Source of the DNA: Ignavibacteria bacterium
GTDB taxonomy: Bacteria > Bacteroidota > Ignavibacteria > Tepidaquicellales > Tepidaquicellaceae
Length of the DNA stretch: 64,000 nt
Direction of reading: 5' to 3'
NCBI GenBank assembly: GCA_028714695.1
Contig: JAQTLX010000009.1
Location: forward strand, 1-64,000
The notes below the pieces were generated by a model that did no database searches, was not told the origin of the DNA, and worked only from the letters and a program-made list of their open reading frames with translations. Positions within the stretch are counted from its first letter, which is position 1. Every line of letters starts with the position of its first letter. Made by a program: the position numbers and the translations under genes. Below are positions 32,349 through 36,657 of this stretch, piece after piece.

Positions 32349-34130
32349 ATGAGAATTAAATTCATTTTTACATTATTTGCGCTTTTTATTGCCGTAAATC
32401 TGTTTTCGCAGGATATTTGGTACACTACGGTCTTAAAAGAGAATTTTGTTGATAAGAACGGAAATCCCCTTACTGGCAAAGGCGTTGTGGTAGGCGATAT
32501 CGATTCCGGCGTCGATATTTTTTCGCCGTTCTTTTTCTTTGCCGACGGCGGGGAATTCAACTGGATTGACGTCGATAAAGACGGAAAATTCACACCGGGA
32601 ATAGACGCCGTTGATTTCAAAGGCGACGGTATTGCATCCGCCGGTTCGATATTAAGATATATCGAAATGAAAAACAATACATACAATGTATTGAAAACCG
32701 ATAAAGAACATTTTAATCCCGATATGGATTTTCTGTATGCCGATAAAAACGGAAACGGAAAACGCGACTTCGGCGAAAATGAAGGATTCACCGAAAACGA
32801 CGCTACCTACGGCGAACAGTTATTCATTGCAATCGATGCGAACGGCAACGGTACGCTTGACCCGGGAGAAAAAATTGTCGCTCTGAAAACTTCTAAAGTC
32901 CGCGCGGTGAGAGAAAAGAGCGGAACAATCAGAAGACGAGGAATTGATTTGATTAAAACCGAACCCGACACAATCCAGCACGGCACAAGCGTTTCGGGTA
33001 TTGTTCTCGGCGGACACATGGGAGTGCAGAAAATGCACGGCTTCGCGCCAGACGCAGAACTCGTTATGGCGAACATAGATTACGCTTATACGCCAAGATT
33101 CGTACGTACATTTCCCGATTTGCTTAAATTCATAAGAGACGAAAAAGTTAATATACTTCTCTTTGAAGACGGCGAGTGGATGTGGGAATTCATGGACGGC
33201 TCAACGGAAGAAGAAATGCTGACGAATGAAATTGCACGCTCCGGAATTACAGTGATAGGCGGAGGCGGAAATCTCGCATCCGGAAATATGATTTTAAGAG
33301 ACAAACTGAAAAAAGGACAGAAGACGGAATATAAATTCTCAAGCCCTGCTGCAGGAGAAGGAAAAAAGAATGACGGCTCTTTCGTTTCTTTCCTGTGGAA
33401 AGGAAAAGACAAGAACGCGGTATTTAATATTGTAACGCCTGACTTTAAAACATCGCCGGATTTAAGCAAAGGCTCGGGATTTATAAAGGTCGGAAATTAT
33501 AATATATATTATTCGAGAGAAGTATCTTCGAAAAACACCGTGATGTTTAAGTTCTCGTTCTCGGAAAAAGATTCGGGCGCTGTCAAAGGCGACTGGCTGA
33601 TTAAGGTCAAATCAAAAGACGATATGGAATTATGGGGATTTATTGTTGACGTAACGCAGTCATGGGGCGGAACCACAAGGTGGTATTCGGATAAAATTTC
33701 CGACGAAGGTTCGGTAACGTTCCCCTGCACGGCTGACAGTTGCATAGCGGTCGGCGCTTACACGGTTAACTTCGCGTGGGGCCCGCAGGACAAAAAAGGA
33801 GCGCTCTGCAGTTACAGCGGAAGAGGATTGAATATTTCCGGCAAACGCGGAATCGACATCTGCGCGCCGGGACATTCAACATTCACTTGCGGTCCGAATT
33901 GTTCATATACACTATTCAGCGGAACGAGTTCAGCGGCGCCGCACGTAGTCGGCACAGTCGCATTGCTTCTGCAGTATGACCCAACACTGACGCATTCGCA
34001 GGTGAGAAATATATTGATGCAGACCGCGACTCAGGATGAATTCACAGGACCGCTGCCGAATGACAACTGGGGAGCCGGAAAACTCAATCCCGAAGGCGCA
34101 ATTAAATACCTCCAGAGTATTTCAAAATAA
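32349..34130 (+). CDS. Secreted subtilisin-family serine protease (S8) with calcium-loop insert
   Basis: A 593-residue protease with a signal peptide (about 1-20). The catalytic triad is Asp52 (VVGDIDSGVD), His211 (QHGTSVSGIV) and Ser527 (FSGTSSAAPHVVG). There is no long propeptide: the Asp motif comes only ~30 residues after the signal peptide. Between Asp and His is a ~150-residue insert with three Asp/Asn-Gly-rich loops (DVDKDGKFTPGID, DKNGNGKRDFGEN, DANGNGTLDPGEK) of EF-hand/dockerin-like calcium-binding type. A domain before the Ser (about 330-440) looks like a beta-sandwich. No T9SS tail is seen. Its last codons and terminator are duplicated 2.3 kb downstream. Confidence 0.93.
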   Translation: MRIKFIFTLFALFIAVNLFSQDIWYTTVLKENFVDKNGNPLTGKGVVVGDIDSGVDIFSPFFFFADGGEFNWIDVDKDGKFTPGIDAVDFKGDGIASAGSILRYIEMKNNTYNVLKTDKEHFNPDMDFLYADKNGNGKRDFGENEGFTENDATYGEQLFIAIDANGNGTLDPGEKIVALKTSKVRAVREKSGTIRRRGIDLIKTEPDTIQHGTSVSGIVLGGHMGVQKMHGFAPDAELVMANIDYAYTPRFVRTFPDLLKFIRDEKVNILLFEDGEWMWEFMDGSTEEEMLTNEIARSGITVIGGGGNLASGNMILRDKLKKGQKTEYKFSSPAAGEGKKNDGSFVSFLWKGKDKNAVFNIVTPDFKTSPDLSKGSGFIKVGNYNIYYSREVSSKNTVMFKFSFSEKDSGAVKGDWLIKVKSKDDMELWGFIVDVTQSWGGTTRWYSDKISDEGSVTFPCTADSCIAVGAYTVNFAWGPQDKKGALCSYSGRGLNISGKRGIDICAPGHSTFTCGPNCSYTLFSGTSSAAPHVVGTVALLLQYDPTLTHSQVRNILMQTATQDEFTGPLPNDNWGAGKLNPEGAIKYLQSISK

Positions 34131-34200
34131 GATTGTAGTGAGATTATAAATTAGTTTATTGGTTTGCGTAAACCCGGCTGTTCAAACAGCCGGGTTTTTT
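34116..34200 (+). repeat. Direct repeat copy 1: end of the subtilase gene plus terminator
   Basis: This 85-bp segment, starting in the last codons of the subtilase gene (AGTATTTCAAAATAAGATTG), is repeated at 36438-36521 with about five differences. The two copies flank a 2.2-kb AT-rich insert containing a lipoprotein gene, a DUF559 gene and REP-like repeats. Confidence 0.92.
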
Positions 34201-34201
34201 G
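34170..34201 (+). terminator. Rho-independent terminator of the subtilase gene
   Basis: AAACCCGGCTGT and ACAGCCGGGTTT form a perfect 12-bp stem around TCAA, followed by T. It is part of the 85-bp direct repeat. Confidence 0.92.
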
Positions 34202-34220
34202 TTTTCCATTTCTTTGTGTC

Positions 34221-34287
34221 CCCTTAGGGGGGATCGAAGAGTAGCCGAGGCGATGTGCCTGCGGTGCTGACGGAGCAGGGCAAGAGA
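34221..34287. repeat. REP-like repeat, copy a
   Basis: CCCTTAGGGGGGATCGAAGAG, then AGCCGAGGCGATGTG and CTGACGGAGCAGGGCAAGAG, shares its skeleton with 34352-34411 and 35693-35758: a CCTTAGGGGG-like palindrome, 'TCGAAGAG', 'GCCGAGGCGATGTGYCTG' and 'GACGGAG..GGGCAAG'. Non-coding. Confidence 0.8.
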
Positions 34288-34351
34288 ACGGATAGTTACT
34301 GAAAAATAAAATATCAATTTATTAAATTTATTATATAACAAATGTTCAACT

Positions 34352-34411
34352 TTGGAGGAGTCGAAGAGCAGCCGAGGCGATGTGTCTGGGGAGCAGATAG
34401 GGGAGGGCAAG
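34352..34411. repeat. REP-like repeat, copy b
   Basis: GGAGGAGTCGAAGAGCAGCC, followed by GAGGCGATGTGTCTG and GGGGAGGGCAAGAAG, matches copies a and c. It lies 64 bp after copy a in the same orientation. Between copy b and the lipoprotein gene is AT-rich sequence whose 34494-34545 part resembles 36530-36581. Confidence 0.8.
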
Positions 34412-35675: not shown

Positions 35676-35692
35676 ACAAGTAGTTGATGTTC

Positions 35693-35758
35693 TCCTTAGG
35701 AGGAGTCGAAGAGTCGCCGGGGCGATGTGTCTGCGGAGCAGACGGAGGAGAGCAAATA
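35693..35758. repeat. REP-like repeat, copy c, upstream of the DUF559 gene
   Basis: TCCTTAGGAGGAGTCGAAGAG and CGCCGGGGCGATGTGTCTG, then GCAGACGGAGGAGAGCAA, is in the same orientation as copies a and b. The GGAGGAG near its end lies about 12 bp before the DUF559 ATG and could serve as that gene's ribosome-binding site. Its inverted counterpart stands just after the gene at 36163-36262. Confidence 0.8.
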
Positions 35759-35761
35759 AAT

Positions 35762-36151
35762 ATGACAAATAAACTTTCCGAAATAACCAACTATAATAAA
35801 AGATTAAAGCCGTTTGCAAGTAATCTCCGCAAAGAAATGACCAAGTCTGAATCTTGTTTGTGGAAATATGTTCTCAAGTCTGGAAAAATGTGCGGGTATC
35901 ACTTCAGGCAACAGAGATCGGTACTTAAATACATTGCGGACTTTATGTGCGTGGAACTCAAGTTGGTAATCGAACTCGACGGAGCTACTCATATGTTGGA
36001 CGATGTTATTGAAAAAGATATAAAGAAACAAAAAGATCTGGAGAACGCAGGGTTTATTGTTATGAGATTTACAGACAATGAAGTGTTAACAGGGATTGAA
36101 GGGGTCGCGGAAAAGATAAAAGAGAAAATATTTGAAATCACAAAAAAGTGA
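35762..36151 (+). CDS. DUF559 endonuclease-like protein (Vsr-related fold)
   Basis: A 129-residue protein of the DUF559 family, related to very-short-patch-repair and PD-(D/E)XK-type nucleases. RKEMTKSESCLWKYVL, GYHFRQQRSVLKYIADFMC and KLVIELDGATHM contain the conserved Phe-Arg-Gln, the Asp of IADF and the Glu/Asp of IELDG; VMRFTDNEVL is the usual C-terminal motif. I take the ATG at 35762, since this matches the family N-terminus. The biochemical role of DUF559 proteins is largely unknown. The gene is flanked by REP-like repeats in opposite orientations, which suggests that gene and repeats may move or be maintained together (inference). Confidence 0.88.
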   Translation: MTNKLSEITNYNKRLKPFASNLRKEMTKSESCLWKYVLKSGKMCGYHFRQQRSVLKYIADFMCVELKLVIELDGATHMLDDVIEKDIKKQKDLENAGFIVMRFTDNEVLTGIEGVAEKIKEKIFEITKK

Positions 36152-36162
36152 TTCTTGCGATT

Positions 36163-36262
36163 ACCCTCCCCCGCGGCTAAAGTCTTAGAACTGCTGTGGC
36201 AGGCCGCACCCTCCGCACAAAAAAACGGCGGATCTTCGACCTCCAAAGGGGGACATAGAGTG
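36163..36262. repeat. REP-like repeat, copy d, inverted, downstream of the DUF559 gene
   Basis: Starting TTACCCTCCCCCGCGGCTAA and ending ACGGCGGATCTTCGACCTCC and AAAGGGGGACA, its reverse complement (GTCCCCCTTTGGAGGTCGAAG..) resembles the outer end of copy c. It includes CACCCTCCGCACAAAA, which recurs in copy e as TACCCTCTGCACAAAG. Confidence 0.78.
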
Positions 36263-36316: not shown

Positions 36317-36427
36317 ACTCCCCCGCCTCACCACAGCGAGCCTGCAGTCTTCGGGTACCCTCTGCACAAAGTACGGCGGATCATTGACTCTCCCAGGTGA
36401 GCCTTCGGCCTGTAAAGGAGAATAAAG
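36317..36427. repeat. REP-like repeat, copy e, same orientation as copy d
   Basis: CACTCCCCCGCCTCACCACAG, CTCTGCACAAAGTACGGCGG and ATCATTGACTCTCCCAGG, then GGCCTGTAAAGGAGAATAAAG, follow the same order of blocks as copy d. It ends 10 bp before the second copy of the subtilase 3' end. Confidence 0.72.
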
Positions 36428-36437
36428 AATATCAAAA

Positions 36438-36521
36438 AGTATTTCAAAATAAGATTGTAGTAAGATAATAAAATAGTTTATTGGTTTGCGTAAACCCGGC
36501 TGCTTCAACAGCCGGGTTTTA
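36438..36521 (+). repeat. Direct repeat copy 2: subtilase 3'-end codons plus terminator
   Basis: AGTATTTCAAAATAAGATTG and the following sequence through the terminator repeat 34116-34200. No protease sequence precedes it, so this is a fragment left by duplication or insertion. Confidence 0.92.
36491..36521 (+). terminator. Rho-independent terminator (second copy)
   Basis: AAACCCGGCTG and CAGCCGGGTTT form the stem; the loop differs slightly from the first copy (CTTCAA versus TTCAAA). It would end transcripts from the DUF559 gene. Confidence 0.88.
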
Positions 36522-36657
36522 TTTTGTTTGAATATCGTTTAATATTTGTTTATTTATCGTTAAGTTTATTTTAAGTTCTCAAACTAAACTCTGCCATTAA
36601 AGAATAATTATACTTTTACAAAACTAATACCGGGTTAATAAATTTAATTCTCTCAAA

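What the first reader, a model, noticed from the sequence alone, without database searches (positions are those of the whole stretch)
35693..36262. DUF559 endonuclease-like gene framed by inverted REP-like repeats: possible undescribed mobile or REP-linked system
Upstream repeat c (35693-35758) and downstream repeat d (36163-36262) are in inverted orientation around a complete DUF559 gene; two more copies (a, b) lie upstream and one (e) downstream. The repeat also supplies a GGAGGAG site about 12 bp before the DUF559 ATG. The layout resembles REP-associated tyrosine transposases framed by REPs, but with a Vsr/PD-(D/E)XK-like nuclease. I infer that the nuclease might recognise or spread these repeats.
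Basis: partly seen in the sequence, partly recalled or inferred. Interest (0 to 1): 0.65.

Follow-up and report, generated by a model that had tools for sequence, protein, structure and literature searches.

The report
Nuclease gene framed by REP-like repeats
A small DNA-cutting-enzyme gene (DUF559) sits between inverted hairpin repeats, and the same enzyme-repeat pairing recurs across at least a dozen bacterial phyla and even inserts in frame into other genes, so it looks like an undescribed repeat-and-nuclease mobile system that works like, but is not, the known REP/RAYT system.

Summary
The DUF559 gene (35762-36151, +) lies between a repeat with its tail toward the start codon and inverted repeats after the stop; a second cassette in the same genome is framed the same way. 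In 40 contigs of class relatives, 35/43 small DUF559 genes have a C-arm/G-arm hairpin within 250 bp, against 12/99 equally isolated control ORFs (p=1e-15). In an independent sample of 80 loci from many phyla it is 65/70 against 9/59 (p=1e-20). The tail points toward the gene on both sides (+/- framing 24, -/+ 2). Hairpin copy number follows DUF559 number across 79 genomes (rho 0.65; backwards control 0.005). Longer DUF559 paralogues have none (0/7). Repeat and protein similarity covary (p=0.001). At one site in uvrC, and one in hsdR, relatives are empty, carry the repeat alone in frame, or carry repeat+DUF559+repeat in frame. The fold matches 3HRL, homing endonuclease I-Bth0305I and Vsr. I found no description in the searchable literature. 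Most likely: a mobile nuclease-REP unit spread by nuclease-stimulated copying. Association and insertion are shown; that DUF559 drives movement is inferred. E. coli ycjD is a member, so it is testable.

The parts
35762..36151 (+). DUF559 (PF04480) Vsr/PD-(D/E)XK-like nuclease gene, 129 aa
   Evidence: ORF and Pfam E=8e-31; AlphaFold pLDDT 90, best PDB fold matches 3HRL, 3R3P (I-Bth0305I), 1VSR
35687..35755 (+). repeat c: head hairpin CTCCTTAGGAG, variable stem-loops, G-rich tail GGAGGAG; tail toward the gene and placed as a Shine-Dalgarno site
   Evidence: direct repeat family D1; tail 35744-35750, 11 nt before ATG
36163..36262 (-). repeat d: inverted unit after the stop codon, tail GGGGGAGGGTAA toward the gene
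   Evidence: sequence and alignment; nearly the same tail and middle block as the upstream unit of the second own-genome cassette
34215..34283 (+). repeat a: extra upstream unit without a gene
   Evidence: family D1
34342..34410 (+). repeat b: extra upstream unit without a gene
   Evidence: family D1, 84% identical to c
36318..36422 (-). repeat e: second downstream inverted unit, diverged

Best explanation
The repeats and the DUF559 gene are one unit: REP-like repeat (tail toward gene) - nuclease ORF - inverted REP-like repeat. It is the autonomous form of a repeat family whose solo copies are dispersed in the genome. SHOWN: the pairing is general for this clade of small DUF559 proteins, polarised, and correlated in copy number. 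Repeat alone and repeat-gene-repeat are found as in-frame insertions at fixed positions in conserved genes of relatives that are otherwise empty there. INFERRED: the Vsr/homing-endonuclease-like protein cuts or nicks at or near the target (an empty site, or a hairpin extruded by a repeat), and repair copies the repeat, with or without the gene, from a filled copy. This would spread both allelically (as in homing) and, because repeats are dispersed, between repeats. The in-frame, stop-free reading of the repeats and their placement in linkers would keep the cost to the host low. The tail probably doubles as a ribosome-binding site for the nuclease.
For: Isolated-ORF controls: 35/43 v 12/99 and, out of sample, 65/70 v 9/59. 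Orientation: upstream + 55 v - 10 (p=1e-8), downstream - 39 v + 10 (p=4e-5), +/- framing 24 v 2. Genome counts: rho 0.65, p=1e-10, backwards pattern rho 0.005. Paralogue control 0/7. Covariation Mantel r=0.21, p=0.001. uvrC three states at one site. hsdR at one site: empty in most genes with identical spacing, repeat only in G126, DUF559 in 7 class genomes plus 2 from other phyla; G187 host 82-86% identical to Muricauda/Calditrichia HsdR but their DUF559s only 39-42%. Host Pfam domains UvrC_RNaseH_dom and Type_ISP_C each split in two. Purifying selection, dN/dS 0.065 between the two own-genome copies. Profile and fold match to homing endonuclease I-Bth0305I and Vsr.
Against: No cleavage or movement has been observed. 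Some cassettes sit at syntenic places in congeners, so inheritance is partly vertical. In the window's own genome the family is low copy: 9 heads, 5 strict hairpins. About 7-19% of small DUF559 genes have no detectable hairpin within 250 bp. E. coli ycjD has repeats on one side only. Y1 transposases also correlate, more weakly, with hairpin number (partial r 0.27). A nuclease alone does not explain ectopic spread without host repair. Loci are related by descent, so p-values overstate independence.
Confidence: 0.66

Rival explanations
1. Hitch-hiker: the repeats are spread by another enzyme and DUF559 genes merely tend to lodge between them, for example as cargo joined by repeat-repeat recombination.
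For: Repeats flank other sequence too; in the window a 362-aa ORF also lies between copies b and c. Many solo repeats exist.
Against: The gene is packed tightly against the tails with fixed polarity (stop to next hairpin median 16 nt). The pairing holds across many phyla, covaries with protein sequence, and only this DUF559 clade shows it.
Confidence: 0.14
2. The repeats are ordinary REPs mobilised by RAYT (HUH) transposases; DUF559 is a passenger or a competitor.
For: Y1_Tnp genes are common in these genomes and correlate weakly with hairpin number.
Against: G010 has 362 hairpins and G035 has 115 with no Y1_Tnp match. The partial correlation is 0.57 with DUF559 and 0.27 with Y1. The repeats lack the GTAG tag that defines REPs (PMC3733652).
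Confidence: 0.07
3. A host-serving Vsr-like repair or restriction function: DUF559 is a domesticated mismatch or modified-base nuclease, and the repeats are its regulatory hairpins or genomic target sites, not mobile partners.
For: Caulobacter VsrA is a DUF559 protein tied to a cytosine methyltransferase (PMC12907096). Fold match to Vsr. Strong purifying selection. Weak match to methyl-directed REase models.
Against: Patchy, multi-copy distribution. In-frame insertion of the whole cassette into unrelated genes at fixed sites. Repeats occur on both sides, not only at the promoter.
Confidence: 0.1
4. No special link: C/G hairpins are transcription terminators or chance palindromes in intergenic DNA.
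For: Some control ORFs also have such hairpins downstream.
Against: Matched isolated controls, upstream enrichment, polarity, backwards-pattern control and in-frame copies inside genes.
Confidence: 0.03

Closest known systems
REP / RAYT (TnpA-REP) 'REPtron' (PMC2817692, PMC3733652, PMC8266576)
   Same: Small gene framed by two inverted hairpin repeats; dispersed solo and paired copies; copy number tracks the gene; repeat and protein covary; some copies inside genes.
   Different: Enzyme is a Vsr-like PD-(D/E)XK nuclease, not an HUH/Y1 transposase. The repeat has no GTAG tag and is a C-arm/G-arm hairpin plus G-rich tail. Repeat-rich genomes without any Y1_Tnp exist.
Vsr-like (EDxHD) homing endonucleases, type I-Bth0305I (PDB 3R3P)
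   Same: Same fold, sequence profile match E=1e-7, insertion at fixed sites in conserved genes.
   Different: No intron or intein around it: the insert stays in frame in the coding sequence, and it carries dispersed REP-like ends.
Vsr very short patch repair endonuclease and DUF559 proteins YcjD / VsrA / NGO0050 (3HRL)
   Same: Homologous nuclease core; YcjD and NGO0050 belong to the same short DUF559 group and also lie next to such repeats.
   Different: Vsr has a mismatch-repair role beside a methyltransferase; no repeats are part of its description.
Rickettsia palindromic elements and other in-frame palindromes
   Same: Palindromic repeats that insert in frame into genes and are tolerated.
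   Different: From general knowledge, no enzyme is known for them; here a nuclease gene travels with the palindrome.
E. coli BoxC repeats (PMC2267715: 22-32 copies, 50-56 bp)
   Same: The 43-bp repeat beside ycjD has a median of 16 BLAST places per E. coli genome, in the BoxC range.
   Different: Identity with BoxC not verified from sequence here.

Membership tests
REP/RAYT (REPtron) | gene framed by inverted repeats with fixed polarity | tested here: met
   +/- 24, -/+ 2
REP/RAYT (REPtron) | abundance of the repeat tracks presence of the gene | tested here: met
   rho 0.65 v control 0.005
REP/RAYT (REPtron) | HUH / Y1 tyrosine transposase | tested here: not met
   Pfam: only DUF559 and MTES_1575; fold Vsr-like
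REP/RAYT (REPtron) | GTAG-tagged palindrome | tested here: not met
   units start with a C-arm hairpin and end in a G-rich tail
DUF559 (PF04480) | profile score above gathering cut-off | tested here: met
   106.6 bits v 20.6
PD-(D/E)XK / Vsr fold | fold and conserved acidic/His residues | tested here: met
   invariant E30, D60, E71, G74, H77, D86 in 43 sequences; fold match 3HRL, 3R3P, 1VSR
Homing endonuclease | insertion at a fixed site of a conserved gene, empty alleles elsewhere | tested here: met
   uvrC, hsdR
Homing endonuclease | resides in self-splicing intron or intein | tested here: not met
   inserts read through in frame; Pfam finds host domains and DUF559 only
Homing endonuclease | cleaves the empty allele | not testable with these tools
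   needs biochemistry
Vsr mismatch repair | cognate cytosine methyltransferase partner next to the gene | not tested
   named window neighbours are subtilase, Der GTPase and ChlI-like, none a methyltransferase; not surveyed genome-wide

The most novel reading that the evidence does not exclude
A pan-bacterial class of minimal mobile elements driven by a lone Vsr-like PD-(D/E)XK nuclease with REP-like ends: a second, unrelated enzyme class behind bacterial REP-type repeats. It inserts in frame into restriction-modification and repair genes and has E. coli ycjD with its BoxC-like repeat as a domesticated or decayed member.
Probability: 0.5. Interest if true: 0.9.

Novelty: new variant of a known kind. 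Interest (0 to 1): 0.8.

Why it matters
Dispersed palindromic repeats are common in bacteria, and many families have no known mobilising enzyme (PMC3733652 says so for CGTC repeats). This gives one large G/C-hairpin family a concrete enzyme candidate and a function for a widespread 'domain of unknown function'. It also offers natural cases of whole-nuclease insertion in frame inside UvrC and restriction enzymes. Members exist in E. coli K-12-like strains and one has a crystal structure, so the idea can be tested directly.

Tried and rejected
(1) Terminator or chance hairpins: rejected by backwards-pattern and isolated-ORF controls. (2) RAYT as driver: weakened by repeat-rich genomes with no Y1_Tnp. 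(3) A clean empty site for the window locus in congeners: G002 and G003 lack the cassette, but the intergenic content differs. (4) Indel scan between syntenic 20-kb loci of one genus: too diverged, no clean hairpin boundaries. (5) E. coli ycjD as an insertion polymorphism: present in 3365/5426 genomes, but the alternative allele is the eefRABCD operon, so this is a replacement and not an empty site (PMC12817139). (6) Long direct repeats around some genes: mostly paired repeat units on both sides.

Full report
OBSERVATION. The window holds a complete DUF559 gene (35762-36151, +) between a forward repeat c (35687-35755) and inverted repeats d and e; repeats a and b lie further upstream. GGAGGAG of c is 11 nt before the ATG. 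The genome (G000) has a second short DUF559 gene, 85% identical, with the same framing: tgtccccCTTAGGAGGGGG...GCGGGGGAGG then the gene, and an inverted tccccCTTTGGAGGGGG unit behind it. dN/dS between the two is 0.057/0.868, so the protein is under purifying selection. The head 21-mer occurs 9 times in G000, 17 in G001 and 11 in G002, with 0 for the backwards control; most copies are without the gene.

GENERALITY. PF04480 is found in 55 of 79 relatives. I fetched 40 contig stretches around small DUF559 genes and saw a hairpin-plus-tail of the form CCCC(C/T)CC-loop-GG(A/G)GGGG-nn-GGGG(A/T)GG on both sides, differing between genomes and matching within one. Defined as a C-rich 5' arm with a complementary 3' arm, the hairpin lies within 250 bp of 36/44 DUF559 genes against 56/558 control ORFs. 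Against control ORFs with at least 120 bp free on both sides it is 35/43 against 12/99; hairpin density within 400 bp of the genes is 2.6 per kb against 0.35 in other intergenic DNA. A test free of any consensus, local alignment of upstream flank to reverse-complemented downstream flank, gives 42% against 2% at score 18 or more.

OUT-OF-SAMPLE TEST. A consensus DUF559 protein pulled 80 loci from GTDB genomes of many phyla, including Bacteroidota, Chloroflexota, Desulfobacterota, Nitrospirota, Patescibacteria, Planctomycetota, Calditrichota, Neomarinimicrobiota, Omnitrophota, Zixibacteria, Spirochaetota and Pseudomonadota. With the hairpin definition fixed beforehand, apart from a small widening of the arm seed, 65/70 genes have it within 250 bp and 41/70 on both sides; isolated controls give 9/59 and 1/59. 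The architecture is remarkably constant: TCCCCCTTT-nn-AAAGGGGGA-nn-AGGGGGATTT-(about 10 nt)-ATG ... stop-AATCCCCC-nn-TCCCCCTTT-nn-AAAGGGGG. Tails point to the gene on both sides. Caveat: the sample is enriched for proteins close to the consensus, so the figure applies to this clade, not all of PF04480; loci also share ancestry.

SPECIFICITY. Longer DUF559 paralogues (about 230-290 aa) in the same genomes have no hairpin nearby, 0/7. Across 79 genomes the count of CCCCYYYYN{0,12}RRRRGGGG correlates with the number of short DUF559 genes (rho 0.65, p=1e-10; within the window's family 0.71, within the sister family 0.87), while the same pattern read backwards does not (rho 0.005). Y1 transposases correlate less, and the richest genome, G010 with 362 hairpins, has none. 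Repeat similarity covaries with protein similarity.

INSERTION EVIDENCE. Several DUF559 domains lie inside large ORFs. Pfam shows hosts UvrC, HsdR, Type ISP/Eco57I-like and N6_N4 methylase restriction-modification proteins and a SpoU rRNA methylase, with UvrC_RNaseH_dom and Type_ISP_C each split into two stretches. In one genus, uvrC at a single linker is empty in G029, G030, G037 and G042 (and in G033 of a sister genus), carries in-frame repeats only in G032 and G036 (the latter cut off by its contig end), and carries repeats-DUF559-repeats in frame in G031, G034 and G038. In hsdR, searched over 391 class genomes, the stretch from QYYAVN to WHTQGSGKS has the same 27-residue spacing in most recovered genes, has 9 extra residues from an in-frame hairpin in G126, and has DUF559 between hairpins in G187, G148, G101, G190, G147, G024 and G020, and also in a Muricauda and a Calditrichia genome from the other sample. 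G187's HsdR is 82-86% identical to those two, yet its DUF559 is only 39-42% identical to theirs, so two distant DUF559 clades entered the same position of closely related hosts. Solo repeats and full cassettes are therefore alternative states of the same insertion site. Direction (gain or loss of the gene) cannot be fixed for each case, and I could not define exact ends or a target duplication.

PROTEIN. AlphaFold2 gives a confident model (pLDDT 90, pTM 0.83). The best solved folds are 3HRL (NGO0050), homing endonuclease I-Bth0305I (3R3P) and Vsr (1VSR); the sequence profile also hits 3HRL (8.5e-35) and 3R3P (1e-7). Invariant residues in 43 sequences include E30, D60, E71, H77 and D86. E. coli YcjD was placed with Vsr by profile comparison in 2005 (PMC1189080).

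MODEL ORGANISM. E. coli ycjD (sapF-ycjD-fabI) is a short DUF559 gene with similar repeats downstream, present in 3365 of 5426 genomes. Its 43-bp repeat has a median of 16 places per genome and is present in 5375 genomes. Copy number resembles BoxC (PMC2267715), but I did not verify identity. NGO0050, the protein with a solved structure, is also followed by a row of such hairpins.

MECHANISM. Shown: association, polarity, specificity, copy-number link, insertion at fixed sites. Inferred: the nuclease cuts the target or the repeat, and repair copies the repeat with or without the gene. The relation to a homing endonuclease makes break-and-copy the simplest mechanism. Extruded hairpins as substrate, by analogy with RAYT, is the alternative for ectopic spread.

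NOVELTY. Ten literature searches found no report of DUF559 with repeats; the library lacks most subscription papers. The RAYT system has the same signature with an unrelated enzyme (PMC2817692). I file this as a new variant of a known kind (enzyme-linked REP systems) and keep the stronger reading, a new class of nuclease-driven mobile elements, as the novel case.

Noticed in passing
window 34116-34203 and 36438-36525: An 88-bp direct repeat (91%) containing the end of the subtilase gene and its terminator hairpin (AAACCCGGCTG..CAGCCGGGTTT) brackets the whole island with the 362-aa ORF, DUF559 and the repeats; congeners G002 and G003 lack the island at this place.
   Followed up: partly
L106 and L171: DUF559 plus repeats fused in frame at the N-terminus of a SpoU-type rRNA methyltransferase in two Cytophagales genomes.
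   Followed up: partly
L127, L137, L168, L024, L019, L011: In-frame DUF559 cassettes favour restriction-modification genes (type I, type III, ISP/Eco57I-like); an unexplained host bias.
   Followed up: partly
L157 4154-5357 (Salegentibacter); G006:C81:22339-23110: Tandem runs of two or three DUF559 genes.
   Followed up: no
L205 2503-3199 (Neisseria gonorrhoeae NGO0050 region): Row of alternating hairpin units with about 280-bp period behind the gene whose product has structure 3HRL.
   Followed up: no
L208 2193-2942 (E. coli sapF-fabI): ycjD with decayed repeat array occupies the site where other lineages carry eefRABCD; repeat-mediated deletion might have caused the swap.
   Followed up: partly
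G000:C29:1935-2276: A Y1_Tnp (IS200/RAYT-type) gene lies about 9 kb from the second own-genome DUF559 cassette.
   Followed up: no
G070: 69 strict hairpins but no short DUF559 match: a possible case of repeats outliving their gene.
   Followed up: no
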